Positions 36,392 to 52,594 of a DNA stretch of 64,000 nucleotides are shown here, piece by piece. Position 1 is the first letter of the stretch; every line of letters begins with the position of its first letter. Under the pieces are notes generated by a model, which searched no databases, was not told the origin of the DNA, and saw only the letters and a list, made by a program, of their open reading frames with translations. The stretch spans positions 1,798,001 to 1,862,000 of the forward strand of contig OY101116.1 of NCBI GenBank assembly GCA_956465555.1. Direction: 5' to 3'. A program made the translations under genes and the position numbers. The DNA comes from Nitzschia sp. pyKryTriq1 (lineage: Eukaryota > Bacillariophyta > Bacillariophyceae > Bacillariales > Bacillariaceae).

Positions 36392-36448
36392 ATATCGTAA
36401 AGCAGCCACAGAGTGTAGTAGTACTAGTACTTCGCTGCTTTACGATAT
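36392..36448. repeat. 15-bp inverted repeat (hairpin), third copy at 37150
   Basis: ATATCGTAAAGCAGC at 36392-36406 is the exact reverse complement of GCTGCTTTACGATAT at 36434-36448, with a 27-nt loop. The right arm plus AGTA recurs at 37150-37168, immediately before a TAG repeat. Confidence 0.85.
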
Positions 36449-36980
36449 AGTACTTAGTACTACTAGAGTGACAGTAGTTACTAAATTACCTCAGCTCTCT
36501 ACTCTACTACTAGCTAGTAGCTCTAGCTAGAGTAGAGACGAGTACAAGTACAAGTAGTTGTACAAGTACTGCTACGAGATGCATCATAATACTAGCTACT
36601 GTTGTGTTTCGCGACTTGTTGACACCGCGTGCCCACCGTGTGCTTTCGGCTCTCCAACCGACTTGACGCATTTCGCGTCCAAAAGGGGTGAGAGCGCACC
36701 GACTTGTACGATTTCGGAGATGAGAACCCCGTGTTATTGTTAGTAGATTTTATGGTAGATTATTTTTCGACTACATTCACAGTACAGTACAGGTACAGTA
36801 ACGGTAACGGTAACGGTACATACAGTACACTACCGGTACTTAATCTACTACCGGTAGCTCTACTCTCTACCGTACTCTACTAGTACCTTGCAATTCTACG
36901 TGCCCACTGGGAACAGCCCGAGCTACTACTCAACTCAATTATTGAGGTCGAGGAAAGCTGCAAGCATAGGACTAGGTTCC

Positions 36981-37090
36981 ATCGTCTCTTGAGATGTGCA
37001 GATTAGCGCTGATGATCCCGTAAGGGTGAAACGAGTCCATTGAGTCAATCAATTGGACTGTCTGGCGTGGATGGTATCGTTCCGGCGGGA
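36981..37090 (+). ncRNA. Candidate type I hammerhead ribozyme
   Basis: Core CTGATGA (37009-37015), stem II CCC-GTAA-GGG (37017-37026), then GAAAC (37028-37032). Stem III starts with A31-C32 pairing to G60-T61, a bulged G33, then AGTCCA (37034-37039) pairing with TGGACT (37054-37059) and a further TTGA/TCAA. Stem III closes on GTC (37060-37062), the expected cleavage triplet. Order core-II-GAAA-III-GUC leaves stem I open, hence type I. Weak points: the 10.1/11.1 pair is U-U, and stem I is poor next to the core (U-G, G-C), with better pairing only distally (CCATC at 36979-36983 with GATGG at 37070-37074). It may be degenerate or may derive from a mobile element. Confidence 0.5.
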
Positions 37091-37162
37091 GAGAGATTAA
37101 TTGCTCTCAACCGTCAAGGTAGCAACTATATTAGACAGTGCACTTTTTCGCTGCTTTACGAT

Positions 37163-37255
37163 ATAGTAGTAGTAGTAGTAGTAGAGAGTAGAGTAGAGTA
37201 GAGTAGAGTAGAGTAGGGAGTAGTAGGGAGTAGTAGTAGTAGAGAGTAGTAGAGG
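37163..37255. repeat. TAG / GAGTA microsatellite tract
   Basis: TAGTAGTAGTAG followed by repeated GAGTA units (GAGTAGAGTAGAGTAG) and GGGAGTAGTA variants. Confidence 0.9.
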
Positions 37256-38294: not shown

Positions 38295-38403
38295 CTGGAG
38301 GTCGGGAAGACTCTAACGGAACAAACGACCACTGATATAGAAGGAGCCTGTCCGTCGCCCGCCTCGCTGCGGCGCGACAGTGGCGAAGTGCAAATGAACC
38401 AGA
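38295..38403. repeat. Short imperfect direct repeat, copy 1
   Basis: 109 bp starting CTGGAGGTCGGGAAGACT and ending AAATGAACCAGA; repeats at 38669-38775 with a handful of substitutions and a 2-bp indel. Confidence 0.9.
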
Positions 38404-38668: not shown

Positions 38669-38775
38669 CTGGAGGTCGGGAAGACTAACGGAACAAACGA
38701 CCACTGATATTGAAAGAGCCTGTCCGTCGCCCCCCTCGCTATGGCGTGACAGTGGCGAAGTGCAAATGAACCAGA
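38669..38775. repeat. Short imperfect direct repeat, copy 2
   Basis: 107 bp copy of 38295-38403, lying 121 bp left of the large duplication boundary. Confidence 0.9.
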
Positions 38776-39423: not shown

Positions 39424-41456
39424 TCAACGCCAGTCGCCAGGCCCGGAGATACGAGGGCGCTTCGCTCCCACTGGAACATCATCATGCCACGCCGGGAGTG
39501 CGGTAACCTTGGAGTCGTCCACCATGGCTTGTCTCTCCTTTTCTTCATCTGATGGCTCGGACTTCTTCTCTTCTTTGTACGATTCGAAGGAATGATAGCT
39601 TGGCAGGGTAGAACTGTCCAGAGCATCAAGAGTTTTGATGAATTGCACCATCAAATCTTGCACCAGAATTCGTGTGAGATTGCTCTTGCAGACGATGCGA
39701 AACATGGTAGCATCCGCCCCCACATCTGTGCAGATATTTTCTCTCGCGCATCCGTTAGTCAAGTCATGAAAGCTTAGACTGTAGCCGCTCACATACCAGT
39801 GACTGACAAATAATCATGATTCAATTCAAGAAGAGCAAAATGCGTCAGGGCATGTCAGTCTACACTTACTACTTCAATGATAATCAGTCCCATACCTAGT
39901 TGAGATTGCGCGATGGAAATCTATGTCGTTGTACCTGAGCTGCACCTCTGGGTTCAGGCGAGCTGCTACGACAGGAAGGCAGCAGTTGTTACCACCATCC
40001 ACAATTTGAAAACGAGGCAATCCATTTGGATGCTTGAGGTCCTTGAGAAAGGTCCGAATGCAGGAGGCAACATTCATCTGGTTTAACACCTTAGCGCGAT
40101 AGCCTTCTTTTCCAAGACGAAGTAACTTGTAGAACTGAACGTAGGGTCCTGAGGCGGGTCGCGAGAAGTTCAGCGTTATGGAATCGCAGTGGCCCCCGAG
40201 GTACGTTACAGACACAGCAATATGCTCTGCCAGATCATGACGCTCTCGAAAGATGACCCATCCAGTGCCACAGATACTTTCGCCAAACTTGTGGCCACTT
40301 GCAGACATAGACAACACATTCGGGAGTCGAAAGTCAAAGGGAGGGGGGCTAGGCATCTGGAAGGGAGCAATGAAGCCTCCACTTGCTGCATCCACATGAA
40401 TGCCAATCTGCCAGCCTTTCTCCATGTTGAGCTGCTGGATCTCGTGGTCGATATTCCAGACAGGATCGTATACACCATTGTAGTGATTACCGAGGATGGC
40501 AACGACACCGATTGTCTTATCATTACATTTTTTGACGAGTTCTTGTGGGTCCACTGCCATTTTCTGCTGAAGCAAGCTTGGACGCACTAGTATCGGTGAT
40601 ACGTCAAAGAAGCGGAAGAACTTTTTCCACGAATGAGATTAGATTGTGAGATGCCGCAGTATTAGAGCTAACTTATCAGATTGTTTCACATTCAGTACGC
40701 ACTTTTTCCCATGCAGCATGGTGTGCTGTCGAGATGACAATATTTGGCTTGATGGCCTGAACTTGGTCTTCCGAAAGGCCGTGGTGTGCAGCATACCACT
40801 TTCGCCAACGAAATTTGAGGGCCAATCCTAAGGATGGAAAAAAGAAAAGGAGCAATTGTGTTGGATGGCCGGAAGAAATGAGGAAGACGAGAAGGCACTG
40901 AGCATGACCCACCCGCCAGAAGGCAAGCTTCCGTGGACCCAACCGTTCCAGCCCCTACGTAGTTCCCACCCCTTATGGCAGGCTCTGATGGGGCATTCCA
41001 GAGTTTTGCTAGGAGATTGACTACAGTATCATGGAGGTTGATACTTCCTGGGTAAACAGCAGCATTTGCCAGATTGACCTCGGCGCCCATGCTGGCAACC
41101 TCACGTTCTTCGGGCTCCGAAACGACGTTAACATAGGAACCTGTGTTAAGCTGAGGACGAGAGTCACAAAGCCGAACTGAATCTATCAGTTCCTTGACAA
41201 AGCGTGCTGGCATCCCATTCTGAGGAATCTCGTTTCCCTGCACCAGCTGGGCATGGGAGCTGGCATAGAATGTAGTTGACTCGTTCCAATGATTGGCCTG
41301 GGTTTGTTGCAACAAGGCGATTGCTTGTTTCAACAAGGATGATTCCTCGCGGAGGAAAGAGGTTTCCTCGCGGAGGGCGGCAATGAGCTTTTGGTTGTCA
41401 TTGTCGTGGTCGGCACCTGCACCTGCACCTGCACCACCTGCACCGGTACTCGCCAT
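39424..41456 (-). CDS. GAD: Glutamate decarboxylase, copy 1
   Basis: PLP-dependent group II decarboxylase converting glutamate to GABA. Four exons: 41456-40913, 40827-40703, 40620-39896, 39802-39424; introns 85, 82 and 93 bp (GTGGGT...CCTTAG, GTGCGT...AAAAAG, GTATGG...TTGTCAG). The joined frame is 590 aa. Conserved pieces: LNTGSYVNVVSEPEE, NYVGAGTVGSTEACLLAG|LALKFRWRKW, GIHVDAASGGFIAPF (D300) and SASGHKFG with the PLP lysine K334, then YLGGHCDSITLNFSRPAS and WYVSGYSLSFHDL. Unusual: a Gly/Ala-rich start and a heptad-like helix (KLIAALREETSFLREESSLL, about residues 22-45) before the catalytic domain. No targeting peptide. No calmodulin-binding tail was identified; the C-terminus is acidic. Confidence 0.93.
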
Positions 41457-41839
41457 GATGGCGTGAGTGCGGAGGGAGTGAATGAATGCTTTTGCAATTT
41501 TAGATTTCAGGCTTCAGGCTATGGATCGAAAGCTTTTGGCGGGATCGAAAGCTTTTGACGAGCTCTCAACGTATCTTCAGAAGTCAGAAGGAAGCGTGGT
41601 GTTGATTGTAGTAGCGAGACAACAGGAGAGGAGGACAGACGAACGACGGACGAACACATACTGTGAGGATGAGAGAGAGCAGCAGCTAACGGATGACATC
41701 CACCGCGGCAGACTCTCTCATTTCTATTGCTGTTGCAGTTATCAAGCCGGAACGCCGGACCTTGTATAACTACAACCTATTCTTGACGACACATCGGTGC
41801 CGTTGAGACTTAGATAGAATGATTAATCCTACGGCAGTC
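41457..41839. other. Upstream region of GAD copy 1
   Basis: Probable promoter/5' UTR of GAD. Contains a tandem GATCGAAAGCTTTTG repeat near 41524-41555. The plus-strand ORF at 41482-41769 has no domain. Confidence 0.5.
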
Positions 41840-42023: not shown

Positions 42024-43416
42024 CCTCGTCGTCTTGATCAATGCCGTCCTCCCCCATCTCATTAGTAGGAGAGGGTATGGCCTAGGCGATTTCTGAGGAT
42101 GAGGATTCCTCGTCGCCGCTTGTCGCTAGTCCAAAACTTCGACATTTTCATTGTTCGAATCTTTTGTGCCGTACAGTATCAAGTATGTTGAGAATGAATC
42201 ATCATCATGCCGTTATGTATATGACTAACCGGACCAAATCCAGCATAATCGGCGGGAGCATTACAGACGCTATCACACGGACCACGTGGACAAGGATGCG
42301 GCGGACATCCGATCGCCCACCGATCGGTCTTTAGTCATCGGGATCCACCGATCGGACATCGGTCGCCAATACGTACGACGTACGGACCGATTCCACGCCA
42401 GCATGGCCACATTCGTTCTGCCCAACGAAGATCGATGCGGAACCGATGAAAAGCAACACGGGAAAGTACGGGGAGATAGGAACTGGATAGGAAGCGCTGC
42501 GCGCAGACGAGCGACGAGATCTTTTGTTTTACTGCACCATACCGTAGGTCCCTACGAAGTACTCGTACCGGTATACCGGTACCGGTATCGGGGAGATGTG
42601 TCAAACCTGGCTTCCCCCAATAATTCGAACTCCCCTTTTACAGTCGGCCACGTCGTTTGGCTGAAATTTCACATGGTCGCGAATGTCAATAAGTGAAGTA
42701 CCGGCCGGCGCGACCCCACAACTTTGTGGGTTCTGGGTCATAGGTATGAACCATACCCTACAACATTGTGGGTCGGCGTTGCGCGAATTGGTGACTGCCC
42801 GGTGGGACCCCTTGACGTGAAATCTCAAATCTCAATAAATTTCGTGCGCGCGGAGAGCGTGTGAGAATCTCAATTTTTTACGATCTCAATTTTTCACGTG
42901 CGTAGCTTTAATATTTGGATATTTGACCTGGCAGTCTGCTGATAGATTTGGGGGAATAAACGAGGGGAGAAAACTGACGTTGACACATCTCCCGGTACCA
43001 GGTACGCGGTATCTTCGGCACATATTTGACCTGTGTGCCCTGGACTTTATGTCATTCTTTGTGCCTTGCGCGCCGAAATCGGAAAAGCGCTGGAGTCGGA
43101 GAAACTATTCGTGCCAGTCAACCGACTCCAACGCTCTACGTGCAAGTCTACGAAGAATTGTGGTACACGGAGTCGGTATTTGAAGGCACCGTCATTTTAC
43201 ACCTGCCTGCTGGCTATCGCCAAGAAAGAATTGAAGAGGGAACAGAGAGATCCTTGTGGTACAGTACTGGTACTGAACACGGTACTTGTACAGGTACAGT
43301 GTCGTGTATCGTAGCTTGTTCACCGTGCGTATCTGCTATCTTCTCCTCATATATCAGCCGTCTTCTCGAATTCTCGAACGCAAAAAGTTTTCATCATCAT
43401 CAACAACAACAACATC
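42024..43416. other. Left part of block B1, no firm gene
   Basis: Overlapping ORFs (42286-42696, 42923-43484) have no recognisable domain. Contains TACCGGTATACCGGTACCGG palindromes near 42566-42590 and an imperfect inverted repeat (CGACCCCACAA at 42711 with TTGTGGGTCG at 42766-42775) enclosing GGGTCATAGG/CCATACCC-type sequence. The inverted repeat may be a structured RNA or a small element. Confidence 0.5.
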
Positions 43417-43656
43417 ATGAAGCTCTTCTTCGCTCTTACTACTCTCGCCGCAATGGCTGTTGTGGTTGCATCTTCGTCTGCTGACCACGATGAACAAGCC
43501 GCCGCTGGCGTTGACCGTGGCCCTCGTGGCGCCACTAAGGAGAAGAAGGATGTGCCTATCGCTAGAGCTTTGAAGGGGATGACCGGCGGCGGCGAAGGTG
43601 GCATGATGGGCGGCGGAGGTGGCATGATGGGGGGCGGCAGGGGTCGTGATTTTTAA
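43417..43656 (+). CDS. Small secreted Gly/Met-rich protein, copy 1
   Basis: 79 aa. A clear signal peptide (MKLFFALTTLAAMAVVVASS, cleavage near SSA|D) is followed by an acidic then basic segment (DHDEQAAAGVDRGPRGATKEKK) and a C-terminal (GG)MMGGGGGMMGGG tail ending RGRDF. The leader before the ATG is a CATCATCATCAACAACAACA run, as often precedes diatom start codons. No family known to me. Could be a cell-wall or extracellular-matrix peptide; a processed peptide is also possible. No Cys. Confidence 0.65.
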   Translation: MKLFFALTTLAAMAVVVASSSADHDEQAAAGVDRGPRGATKEKKDVPIARALKGMTGGGEGGMMGGGGGMMGGGRGRDF

Positions 43657-45451: not shown

Positions 45452-47484
45452 TCAACGCCAGTCGCCAGGCCCGGAGATACGAGGGCGCTTCGCTCCCACT
45501 GGAACATCATCATGCCACGCCGGGAGTGCGGTAACCTTGGAGTCGTCCACCATGGCTTGTCTCTCCTTTTCTTCATCTGATGGCTCGGACTTCTTCTCTT
45601 CTTTGTACGATTCGAAGGAATGATAGCTTGGCAGGGTAGAACTGTCCAGAGCATCAAGAGTTTTGATGAATTGCACCATCAAATCTTGCACCAGAATTCG
45701 TGTGAGATTGCTCTTGCAGACGATGCGAAACATGGTAGCATCCGCCCCCACATCTGTGCAGATATTTTCTCTCGCGCATCCGTTAGTCAAGTCATGAAAG
45801 CTTAGACTGTAGCCGCTCACATACCAGTGACTGACAAATAATCATGATTCAATTCAAGAAGAGCAAAATGCGTCAGGGCATGTCAGTCTACACTTACTAC
45901 TTCAATGATAATCAGTCCCATACCTAGTTGAGATTGCGCGATGGAAATCTATGTCGTTGTACCTGAGCTGCACCTCTGGGTTCAGGCGAGCTGCTACGAC
46001 AGGAAGGCAGCAGTTGTTACCACCATCCACAATTTGAAAACGAGGCAATCCATTTGGATGCTTGAGGTCCTTGAGAAAGGTCCGAATGCAGGAGGCAACA
46101 TTCATCTGGTTTAACACCTTAGCGCGATAGCCTTCTTTTCCAAGACGAAGTAACTTGTAGAACTGAACGTAGGGTCCTGAGGCGGGTCGCGAGAAGTTCA
46201 GCGTTATGGAATCGCAGTGGCCCCCGAGGTACGTTACAGACACAGCAATATGCTCTGCCAGATCATGACGCTCTCGAAAGATGACCCATCCAGTGCCACA
46301 GATACTTTCGCCAAACTTGTGGCCACTTGCAGACATAGACAACACATTCGGGAGTCGAAAGTCAAAGGGAGGGGGGCTAGGCATCTGGAAGGGAGCAATG
46401 AAGCCTCCACTTGCTGCATCCACATGAATGCCAATCTGCCAGCCTTTCTCCATGTTGAGCTGCTGGATCTCGTGGTCGATATTCCAGACAGGATCGTATA
46501 CACCATTGTAGTGATTACCGAGGATGGCAACGACACCGATTGTCTTATCATTACATTTTTTGACGAGTTCTTGTGGGTCCACTGCCATTTTCTGCTGAAG
46601 CAAGCTTGGACGCACTAGTATCGGTGATACGTCAAAGAAGCGGAAGAACTTTTTCCACGAATGAGATTAGATTGTGAGATGCCGCAGTATTAGAGCTAAC
46701 TTATCAGATTGTTTCACATTCAGTACGCACTTTTTCCCATGCAGCATGGTGTGCTGTCGAGATGACAATATTTGGCTTGATGGCCTGAACTTGGTCTTCC
46801 GAAAGGCCGTGGTGTGCAGCATACCACTTTCGCCAACGAAATTTGAGGGCCAATCCTAAGGATGGAAAAAAGAAAAGGAGCAATTGTGTTGGATGGCCGG
46901 AAGAAATGAGGAAGACGAGAAGGCACTGAGCATGACCCACCCGCCAGAAGGCAAGCTTCCGTGGACCCAACCGTTCCAGCCCCTACGTAGTTCCCACCCC
47001 TTATGGCAGGCTCTGATGGGGCATTCCAGAGTTTTGCTAGGAGATTGACTACAGTATCATGGAGGTTGATACTTCCTGGGTAAACAGCAGCATTTGCCAG
47101 ATTGACCTCGGCGCCCATGCTGGCAACCTCACGTTCTTCGGGCTCCGAAACGACGTTAACATAGGAACCTGTGTTAAGCTGAGGACGAGAGTCACAAAGC
47201 CGAACTGAATCTATCAGTTCCTTGACAAAGCGTGCTGGCATCCCATTCTGAGGAATCTCGTTTCCCTGCACCAGCTGGGCATGGGAGCTGGCATAGAATG
47301 TAGTTGACTCGTTCCAATGATTGGCCTGGGTTTGTTGCAACAAGGCGATTGCTTGTTTCAACAAGGATGATTCCTCGCGGAGGAAAGAGGTTTCCTCGCG
47401 GAGGGCGGCAATGAGCTTTTGGTTGTCATTGTCGTGGTCGGCACCTGCACCTGCACCTGCACCACCTGCACCGGTACTCGCCAT
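45452..47484 (-). CDS. GAD: Glutamate decarboxylase, copy 2
   Basis: Exons 47484-46941, 46855-46731, 46648-45924 and 45830-45452; 590 aa, with every translated segment I compared identical to copy 1, introns included. The PLP lysine (SASGHKFG) and all conserved blocks are intact. The upstream sequence is the same back to the DIRS-like remnant, about 380 bp, so both copies keep the same proximal promoter. Downstream the copies differ: copy 1 faces unique DNA, copy 2 the truncated MFS tail. Confidence 0.93.
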
Positions 47485-47867
47485 GATGGCGTGAGTGCGG
47501 AGGGAGTGAATGAATGCTTTTGCAATTTTAGATTTCAGGCTTCAGGCTATGGATCGAAAGCTTTTGGCGGGATCGAAAGCTTTTGACGAGCTCTCAACGT
47601 ATCTTCAGAAGTCAGAAGGAAGCGTGGTGTTGATTGTAGTAGCGAGACAACAGGAGAGGAGGACAGACGAACGACGGACGAACACATACTGTGAGGATGA
47701 GAGAGAGCAGCAGCTAACGGATGACATCCACCGCGGCAGACTCTCTCATTTCTATTGCTGTTGCAGTTATCAAGCCGGAACGCCGGACCTTGTATAACTA
47801 CAACCTATTCTTGACGACACATCGGTGCCGTTGAGACTTAGATAGAATGATTAATCCTACGGCAGTC
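47485..47867. other. Upstream region of GAD copy 2
   Basis: Same as 41457-41839. Confidence 0.5.
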
Positions 47868-50961: not shown

Positions 50962-52354
50962 CCTCGTCGTCTTGATCAATGCCGTCCTCCCCCATCTCAT
51001 TAGTAGGAGAGGGTATGGCCTAGGCGATTTCTGAGGATGAGGATTCCTCGTCGCCGCTTGTCGCTAGTCCAAAACTTCGACATTTTCATTGTTCGAATCT
51101 TTTGTGCCGTACAGTATCAAGTATGTTGAGAATGAATCATCATCATGCCGTTATGTATATGACTAACCGGACCAAATCCAGCATAATCGGCGGGAGCATT
51201 ACAGACGCTATCACACGGACCACGTGGACAAGGATGCGGCGGACATCCGATCGCCCACCGATCGGTCTTTAGTCATCGGGATCCACCGATCGGACATCGG
51301 TCGCCAATACGTACGACGTACGGACCGATTCCACGCCAGCATGGCCACATTCGTTCTGCCCAACGAAGATCGATGCGGAACCGATGAAAAGCAACACGGG
51401 AAAGTACGGGGAGATAGGAACTGGATAGGAAGCGCTGCGCGCAGACGAGCGACGAGATCTTTTGTTTTACTGCACCATACCGTAGGTCCCTACGAAGTAC
51501 TCGTACCGGTATACCGGTACCGGTATCGGGGAGATGTGTCAAACCTGGCTTCCCCCAATAATTCGAACTCCCCTTTTACAGTCGGCCACGTCGTTTGGCT
51601 GAAATTTCACATGGTCGCGAATGTCAATAAGTGAAGTACCGGCCGGCGCGACCCCACAACTTTGTGGGTTCTGGGTCATAGGTATGAACCATACCCTACA
51701 ACATTGTGGGTCGGCGTTGCGCGAATTGGTGACTGCCCGGTGGGACCCCTTGACGTGAAATCTCAAATCTCAATAAATTTCGTGCGCGCGGAGAGCGTGT
51801 GAGAATCTCAATTTTTTACGATCTCAATTTTTCACGTGCGTAGCTTTAATATTTGGATATTTGACCTGGCAGTCTGCTGATAGATTTGGGGGAATAAACG
51901 AGGGGAGAAAACTGACGTTGACACATCTCCCGGTACCAGGTACGCGGTATCTTCGGCACATATTTGACCTGTGTGCCCTGGACTTTATGTCATTCTTTGT
52001 GCCTTGCGCGCCGAAATCGGAAAAGCGCTGGAGTCGGAGAAACTATTCGTGCCAGTCAACCGACTCCAACGCTCTACGTGCAAGTCTACGAAGAATTGTG
52101 GTACACGGAGTCGGTATTTGAAGGCACCGTCATTTTACACCTGCCTGCTGGCTATCGCCAAGAAAGAATTGAAGAGGGAACAGAGAGATCCTTGTGGTAC
52201 AGTACTGGTACTGAACACGGTACTTGTACAGGTACAGTGTCGTGTATCGTAGCTTGTTCACCGTGCGTATCTGCTATCTTCTCCTCATATATCAGCCGTC
52301 TTCTCGAATTCTCGAACGCAAAAAGTTTTCATCATCATCAACAACAACAACATC
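50962..52354. other. Left part of block B2, no firm gene
   Basis: Same content as 42024-43416; inverted repeat at 51649-51713. Confidence 0.5.
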
Positions 52355-52594
52355 ATGAAGCTCTTCTTCGCTCTTACTACTCTCGCCGCAATGGCTGTTG
52401 TGGTTGCATCTTCGTCTGCTGACCACGATGAACAAGCCGCCGCTGGCGTTGACCGTGGCCCTCGTGGCGCCACTAAGGAGAAGAAGGATGTGCCTATCGC
52501 TAGAGCTTTGAAGGGGATGACCGGCGGCGGCGAAGGTGGCATGATGGGCGGCGGAGGTGGCATGATGGGGGGCGGCAGGGGTCGTGATTTTTAA
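52355..52594 (+). CDS. Small secreted Gly/Met-rich protein, copy 2
   Basis: 79 aa, translation identical to copy 1 at 43417-43656, with the same leader sequence. The nearest downstream gene, MFS, is on the opposite strand and convergent. Confidence 0.65.
   Translation: MKLFFALTTLAAMAVVVASSSADHDEQAAAGVDRGPRGATKEKKDVPIARALKGMTGGGEGGMMGGGGGMMGGGRGRDF

What the first reader, a model, noticed from the sequence alone, without database searches (positions are those of the whole stretch)
36981..37090. Candidate type I hammerhead ribozyme in a gene-poor spacer
CTGATGA, a CCC/GGG stem II with GTAA loop, GAAAC, a stem III of eight base pairs plus a further four and a GTC cleavage triplet occur in the right order and spacing. 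A rough estimate puts chance occurrence in a window this size well below 1 in 1,000. Hammerheads in eukaryotic intergenic DNA often belong to retrozymes or other retroelements. Weaknesses are a U-U at the 10.1/11.1 position and poor stem I pairing near the core.
Basis: partly seen in the sequence, partly recalled or inferred. Interest (0 to 1): 0.75.

Follow-up and report, generated by a model that had tools for sequence, protein, structure and literature searches.

The report
Hammerhead-like relic in diatom retroelement
The hammerhead-like motif is an inherited RNA element in the tail of a many-copy Penelope-like retroelement of what looks like a diatom, and protein relatives suggest that half of a hammerhead ribozyme is written into the end of the element's gene, although this copy probably does not cut itself well.

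Summary
Longer copies encode a GIY-YIG endonuclease of Penelope-like type; the ORF stop lies 2 nt before CTGATGA. No Rfam hammerhead reaches its threshold, stem I has 2 bp, and a descriptor loose enough to find the motif hits 3 of 60 shuffled windows. Three findings rescue it. The block is better conserved between two subfamilies than the rest of the UTR. U-U at 10.1/11.1 is a known tolerated variant. In protein relatives the ORF end, S-[TA]-D-[DE]-X1...X2-E-[RK], has X1/X2 codons with complementary first two bases in 80 of 83 usable proteins (unique: 63 of 66, shuffled mean 15.9; 18 changes on a tree), as if hammerhead stem II lay inside the coding end. Best reading: a hammerhead-derived RNA element at the ORF/3'UTR junction of a PLE clade; the window copy is probably inactive or weak in cis.

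The parts
36887..37165 (+). 5'-truncated copy of the 3' end of a Penelope-like element (end of ORF + 3' UTR), ending in GATATA before a TAG-rich microsatellite
   Evidence: blastn of the window against 38 fetched regions (its own among them): most matches begin at 36887 or further 3' and end near 37165-37200; other copies run further 5'; 43 matches in the genome
36887..37006 (+). last 39 codons of the endonuclease ORF (...RFHRLLRCAD) and its stop TAG at 37004-37006
   Evidence: protein search of the own genome matches here (82% over query 147-180); homologue P0001 ends in the same RFHRLLRCAD
37009..37015 (+). CTGATGA, hammerhead core positions 3-9; in relatives the place of the S-[AT]-D-[DE] codons at the ORF end
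37016..37027 (+). hammerhead stem II: U-U mismatch, CCC/GGG, GTAA loop
   Evidence: 10.2-11.2 and 10.3-11.3 paired in 47 of 47, 10.4-11.4 in 44 of 47, U-U in 46 of 47 aligned copies
37028..37031 (+). GAAA, core positions 12-15.1
   Evidence: 46-47 of 47 at each position
37034..37059 (+). 3' UTR hairpin read as stem III (AGTCCATTGA/TCAATTGGACT), joined to the core by an internal loop
   Evidence: pair probability 0.88-1.0 for five outer pairs and 0.53 for the sixth; hairpin kept in subfamily B and several divergent copies, with exchanges, read by eye from the alignment
37060..37062 (+). GTC, candidate cleavage triplet
   Evidence: U16.1 and C17 in 46 of 46 scorable copies
37063..37070 (+). would-be 3' strand of stem I; pairs only 2 bp with 37007-37008
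37089..37108 (+). second 3' UTR hairpin (GAGAG..CTCTC), replaced by a different paired sequence in L051 and L055
   Evidence: alignment; seen by eye, not tested statistically

Best explanation
The site lies in the last part of an endonuclease-bearing Penelope-like retroelement (PLE) that has spread through what looks like a pennate diatom genome as 5'-truncated copies. In the wider clade the last codons of the endonuclease ORF double as one half of a hammerhead ribozyme: CUGAUGA, a short stem II, GAAA. In the diatom family a frameshift has ended the protein just before this half, so that the RNA half now sits at the start of the 3' UTR, followed by a conserved hairpin and GUC. Most likely mechanism (inferred): the element folds into a hammerhead-like structure at the ORF/UTR junction of tandem PLE RNA, where it processes or once processed that RNA, or serves the PLE protein as a folded landmark. 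The window copy, and most copies of its subfamily, lack a proper stem I and are probably weak or inactive as cis-cleaving ribozymes. Shown: the repeat, the ORF end, block conservation in subfamily B, the stem II coupling in relatives' peptides. Inferred: hammerhead nucleotides in relatives, any cleavage, the role.
For: Copies: 43 matches at 86-100% identity, the window itself among them; 61 places with the 31-nt core at up to 3 mismatches against 0 for the reversed control. GIY-YIG: Pfam 24 bits over cut-off 22.6. Head-to-tail pair of copies in L019. Block more conserved than the rest of the UTR between a main-family copy (L010) and subfamily B: L051 54/56 vs 68/103, L055 53/57 vs 70/103 (Fisher 3e-6 and 1.6e-4; the two are close kin, so not independent tests), although L051's ORF end reads through the block start (SADSADDPG*). 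Relatives: 80 of 83 usable X1/X2 pairs complementary in the first two codon bases, 63 of 66 unique versus shuffle mean 15.9 and maximum 30 in 20,000; z 16 against a next best of 5.6 in 1,244 tests; fewest changes on the tree: pair state 18, X1 17, X2 17; 88 of 101 tails can encode CTGATGA-stem-GAAA, 4 of 1,010 body windows and 61 of 2,020 shuffled tails can. U10.1-U11.1 occurs in natural hammerheads and is the best tolerated mispair (PMC3088659, passage). PLEs carry minimal type I hammerheads (PMC7761336, passages; PMC11167929, passages).
Against: No Rfam hammerhead match in the window region or in eight divergent copies, none over the cut-off in the genome (RF00163 best 19.7 bits against 34; RF00008 and RF02276 no match; only 66-73 candidates were scored in each). 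Stem I is 2 bp in 38 of 44 scorable copies. No coupling that would clearly mark stem I or III was found in the relatives' proteins. CTGATGA in relatives is only compatible with their peptides; no DNA of relatives could be obtained. RNAalifold prefers another fold that pairs the CUGAUGA region with downstream sequence, and the fold of 36976-37095 does not form stem II. Two divergent copies show no excess conservation of the block (L064 50/57 vs 95/103; L061 49/57 vs 94/103). Of 115 anchored proteins, 32 lacked the motif or were too short. No reverse transcriptase match lies beside an endonuclease match.
Confidence: 0.7

Rival explanations
1. The window copy is a catalytically competent type I hammerhead that cleaves after 37062 in cis.
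For: All 13 core positions are present and each is kept in 45-47 of 47 copies (U16.1 and H17 46 of 46); U-U at 10.1/11.1 is tolerated in nature; stem II pairs 0.87-0.89 and five stem III pairs 0.88-1.0 probable in the 97-base fold; this copy even has C15.2-G16.2.
Against: Stem I 2 bp and its 3' strand not conserved; bulged G37033; A15.1-U16.1 probability only 0.255; no Rfam match; a longer fold competes.
Confidence: 0.12
2. The motif is only a relic of protein-coding DNA: CTGATGA is the S-A-D-D codons, the rest coincidence plus recent common ancestry of copies.
For: CTGATGA coincides with a conserved coding motif; many copies are 95-99% identical, so their agreement says little; chance hit about 1 in 20 windows; L061 and L064 show no excess conservation.
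Against: Hairpin and GTC after the stop are conserved between the main family and L051/L055 while the rest of the UTR is not; X1/X2 base complementarity has no obvious protein logic.
Confidence: 0.12
3. A non-catalytic folded landmark (binding site of the PLE protein or a translation/termination signal) that happens to look like a hammerhead half.
For: Conservation without a stem I; a second paired element downstream; in Anolis PAc, hammerhead cleavage is not needed for insertion in vitro (PMC11167929, passage).
Against: In relatives the constrained parts are those that a hammerhead needs: bases compatible with CUGAUGA, a freely varying paired stem, bases compatible with GAAA.
Confidence: 0.3

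Closest known systems
Minimal type I hammerheads of Penelope-like elements (Cervera and De la Pena 2014; Lunse et al. 2017: not held, known here from citations and passages in PMC7761336)
   Same: Same carrier class, same core letters
   Different: By those passages they lack helix III and lie in pseudo-LTRs, and cleave as dimers; here a long hairpin stands in place of helix III, helix I is almost absent, and the place is the end of the ORF
Hammerhead of Poseidon PAc, Anolis carolinensis (PMC11167929, first of four parts and passages)
   Same: Hammerhead overlapping the ORF of an EN+ PLE
   Different: PAc's overlaps the ORF start (cut 26 bp after the start codon); here the overlap is with the ORF's last codons
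Terminon 3'-terminal hammerheads (PMC6431247, passages)
   Same: Hammerhead fold at the 3' side of a PLE
   Different: Terminons are EN-deficient and carry telomeric repeats next to the fold; here there is a GIY-YIG ORF and TAG/CTA-rich 3' flanks
Retrozymes (PMC7761336, passages)
   Same: Repeated, hammerhead-bearing, short copies
   Different: Retrozymes are non-autonomous; this repeat is the truncated end of a coding element

Membership tests
Hammerhead ribozyme (window copy) | Conserved core CUGANGA / GAAA / U16.1 H17 | tested here: met
   each position kept in 45-47 of 47 (U16.1, H17 46 of 46)
Hammerhead ribozyme (window copy) | Stem II closed by a pair at 10.1-11.1 | tested here: not met
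   U-U in 46 of 47; a known natural exception
Hammerhead ribozyme (window copy) | A15.1-U16.1 and stem III | tested here: inconclusive
   A15.1-U16.1 possible in 46 of 46, but predicted probability 0.255; 15.2-16.2 paired in 2 of 46
Hammerhead ribozyme (window copy) | Stem I adjoining the core | tested here: not met
   2 contiguous pairs in the GUC register in 38 of 44 scorable copies, the window's included
Hammerhead ribozyme (window copy) | Score at or above an Rfam hammerhead threshold | tested here: not met
Hammerhead ribozyme (window copy) | Self-cleavage in Mg2+ | not testable with these tools
   needs a bench test
Hammerhead stem II inside relatives' ORF ends | Compensatory exchange of paired bases | tested here: met
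   80 of 83 pairs; 18 changes of the pair state on the tree; first two codon bases only
Hammerhead stem II inside relatives' ORF ends | CUGANGA and GAAA at nucleotide level | tested here: inconclusive
   compatible in 88 of 101 peptides; DNA not available
Penelope-like element (EN+) | C-terminal GIY-YIG endonuclease | tested here: met
Penelope-like element (EN+) | Telomerase-like reverse transcriptase upstream in the same ORF | tested here: inconclusive
   none of the 7 PF00078 matches lies beside an endonuclease match (positions compared by eye); in L065 no RT was recognised by eye among the upstream ORFs, which were not searched; Pfam found no RT in the longer relatives scanned
Penelope-like element (EN+) | Tandem or partial tandem copies, 5' truncation | tested here: met
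   one head-to-tail example, L019; variable 5' ends
Retrozyme | Non-coding, non-autonomous unit bounded by hammerheads | tested here: not met
   copies extend into an ORF

The most novel reading that the evidence does not exclude
In this clade of Penelope-like elements the hammerhead is written into the last codons of the endonuclease gene, and the cleavage triplet is the final Val (or Ile) codon, so that self-cleavage would part the ORF from its own stop codon and define the 3' end of each unit in tandem RNA. Support: 52 of 83 relatives end in V and 9 in I (some ends may be contig ends); in copy L051 the GTC is a Val codon in the GAA frame, followed by TAC, one base from a stop (sequence, reading by eye).
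Probability: 0.15. Interest if true: 0.85.

Novelty: new variant of a known kind. Interest (0 to 1): 0.6.

Why it matters
The role of hammerheads in Penelope-like elements is open in the passages read (PMC7761336: 'still a mystery'). A hammerhead half locked inside the end of the ORF, with paired codons exchanged together, would be a strong sign of function on the RNA level and gives a clear place to test it. It also suggests that ribozymes can be traced from protein sequences alone, which opens metagenome proteins to such searches.

Tried and rejected
Rfam scans of the window, the region, eight divergent copies, and three hammerhead families over the genome gave no hammerhead over threshold. 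One search gave a MIR6224 match in L054 (31.1 bits, cut-off 171), which I take for an inverted pair of element 3' ends, and weak sR10 matches on the C/D-like letters UGAUGA..CUGA, judged chance. SINE: dropped after longer copies proved to code. Coding relic alone: my reading, given up. Coupling that would mark stem III or stem I in the relatives' proteins: next best z 5.6, taken for shared descent. Alternative triplet CUA in subfamily B gives a stem I of 3, 5 and 8 bp in L051, L055, L052: three copies only, not pursued; a GCG/CGU pairing 6 nt into the 3' strand occurs in 29 of 44 but is lost in others. DNA of relatives in viral and prokaryote genome contigs and in phages: none. Solved structures related to the endonuclease: none at E 0.01. 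Rows dropped before counts: of 15 divergent stretches L062 and L063 had no match; L012 (overlong extraction) and L050, L056, L057, L059, L060 were left out of the 47-row alignment; L053, L054 and near-identical rows out of the RNAalifold set; L061, L053 and L054 had no usable anchor for the stem I count. The L052 figure (51/57 vs 42/99) and that of L058 (45/57 vs 51/101) are not used as evidence, because their homology to the element ends early, so the contrast is inflated; the Fisher value for L052 (2e-9) falls with it. Of the 115 anchored proteins 14 were under 16 residues in the tail and were not used.

Full report
Check of the observation. The letters are as described: CTGATGA 37009-37015, stem II 37016-37027, GAAA 37028-37031, hairpin 37034-37059, GTC 37060-37062. 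Rfam finds nothing at gathering scores in the window nor up to E 10 in 36850-37200. A descriptor relaxed enough to accept the site hits it and nothing else in the window, but also hits 3 of 60 Markov-shuffled windows. By itself the motif is therefore a weak find, about 1 in 20 rather than under 1 in 1,000.

What carries it. A search of the window's own 40.65-Mb genome with 36900-37160 gave 43 matches, the window's own included (40 of 373 candidates were scored, so a lower bound). The 31-base core pattern with up to 3 mismatches occurs at 61 places, the reversed control at 0. Copies share the 3' end (...GCTTTACGATATA) and differ in their 5' ends; 27 of 34 copies with an intact 3' end are followed by TAG/CTA-rich sequence, by a simple count without a background control. 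Copies that run further 5' (L022, L017) encode ...VVYKLGCRTCGKFYIGNTQQKL... (L022), a GIY-YIG domain by Pfam. L019 holds two copies head to tail. A C-terminal GIY-YIG endonuclease, tandem copies and 5' truncation fit an EN+ Penelope-like element; PMC11167929 (first of four parts, passages) describes the domain order and the tandem layout. The reverse transcriptase was not seen: none of the 7 PF00078 matches of the genome lies beside an endonuclease match. The host is most likely a pennate diatom: named relatives of its phytoene synthase include Cylindrotheca fusiformis, Nitzschia and Pseudo-nitzschia multistriata (that these are pennate is recalled).

Where the motif lies in the element. In the window family the ORF ends ...RFHRLLRCAD and TAG 37004-37006; CTGATGA starts after two more bases. 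In L051, a broken copy of another subfamily (B), the frame reads ...RFHRLRRSADSADDPG*, through CTGATGA into the stem II loop, and the protein relative P0002 ends ...RCADSADDRV. So CTGATGA is, or was, the codons of S-A-D-D. This first looked like a coding relic that explains the hammerhead away.

Relatives. A profile search gave 391 relatives, 120 listed; with the earlier search 134 distinct proteins. Of these 115 have the C[KR]H..FH anchor. After it many show S-[TA]-D-[DE]-X1-...-X2-E-[RK]. X1/X2 are S/D 37, G/P 17, R/R 8, P/G 8, A/A 7, E/S 2, C/H 1 and three others (S/K, A/N, H/R): in 80 of 83 usable proteins the first two codon bases of X1 can be the reverse complement of those of X2 (Ser, Arg and Leu may use either codon set). 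For 66 unique strings 63 agree; shuffled pairing gives 15.9 on average and at most 30 in 20,000. Slid positions give 0-10 of up to 83, except X1 with the residue after X2 (38 of 83), which is E, whose codon also begins GA. In a scan of 1,244 position pairs the true pair has z 16.1 and the next 5.6. On a tree of the preceding domain (quick search) the pair state changes at least 18 times, X1 17 and X2 17 times, that is, nearly always together; supported independent pairs alone are too few for a significant sign test (at most 5 for any type). 88 of 101 tails of 16 residues or more can be back-translated to CTGATGA, a stem of at least 3 bp and GAAA, against 4 of 1,010 windows of the same proteins and 61 of 2,020 shuffled tails. 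Of the 13 that cannot, four (P0046, P0089, P0111, P0112) fail, by my reading of the list, only because positions 10.1 and 11.1 are both forced to be pyrimidines, the same kind of mismatch as in the window. Five of the 32 unusable ones (P0005, P0027, P0034, P0074, P0120) carry L-M at this place, which can encode CTGATG in another frame (by eye). The residue after E is R 58, K 21, T 2, I 1, N 1, all of which can begin with A, as position 15.1 asks.

What this means. Exchange of G/P, P/G, S/D, R/R and A/A has no obvious protein logic but is just what a paired stem asks for. Set between bases compatible with CUGAUGA and GAAA, it is the signature of hammerhead stem II. So the clade very probably carries a hammerhead half in the end of its ORF. 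The other half (stem III, U-H, stem I) could not be located in the relatives: no coupled positions stood out, and no DNA was available.

Back in the diatom. The block AGCGCTGATGA...GGACTGTC is 96% and 93% identical between the main-family copy L010 and the subfamily B copies L051 and L055, the rest of the UTR 66% and 68% (Fisher 3e-6 and 1.6e-4; gap columns not counted; the two copies are close kin). L064 and L061 show no such excess (88 vs 92%, 86 vs 91%); L053 and L054 show little (90 vs 84%, 74 vs 71%); L052 and L058 show much, but their homology ends early, so I do not count them. Stem II stays paired in 44-47 of 47, U-U stays in 46 of 47. A U10.1-U11.1 start of stem II occurs in natural hammerheads and is the best tolerated mispair (PMC3088659: abstract, passages and one of seven parts). 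Against activity: 15.2-16.2 is A.G in 44 of 46, stem I is 2 bp in the GUC register in 38 of 44, the 3' strand of stem I is not conserved, and predicted folds compete. Hence I do not file the window copy as a working hammerhead; I file the block as hammerhead-derived.

Known or new. PLE hammerheads are described as minimal type I motifs in pseudo-LTRs that lack helix III (PMC7761336, passages); PAc's overlaps the ORF start (PMC11167929); Terminons have one at the 3' end (PMC6431247, passages). A hammerhead half in the last codons of the ORF was not met in the listings of searches (titles and starts of abstracts; only the four papers named here were opened), and the main papers on PLE hammerheads are not held, so novelty is provisional.

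Noticed in passing
window 39874-41513 and 45902-47541; 42229-43484 and 51167-52422: Two sets of ORFs with the same translations at offsets of 6028 and 8938 bases (compared by eye): segmental duplications within the window; the first pair looks like a decarboxylase (recalled, not tested)
   Followed up: no
window 36392-36415 and 36431-36452: An inverted (24 nt, 88%) and a direct (22 nt, 100%) copy of the element's 3' end just upstream: probably remains of further insertions of the same element
   Followed up: partly
window 38313-38403 and 38685-38775: 91-nt direct repeat, 93% identical, 372 bases apart
   Followed up: no
window 37089-37108 and the same place in L051, L055: Second 3' UTR hairpin whose two arms differ between subfamilies but stay complementary (by eye); may be part of the element's recognition by its own protein
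   Followed up: partly
L054 233-402: Inverted pair of element 3' ends that mimics a microRNA precursor (MIR6224 match, E 0.0023, far below its cut-off)
   Followed up: no
whole genome G000: Only 7 PF00078 reverse transcriptase matches beside 58 endonuclease matches, many of them fragments: no intact driver of this element seen
   Followed up: partly
P0001-P0134: Many relatives end in V or I (52 and 9 of 83), unexplained unless the last codon is the cleavage triplet or a protein-binding tail
   Followed up: partly
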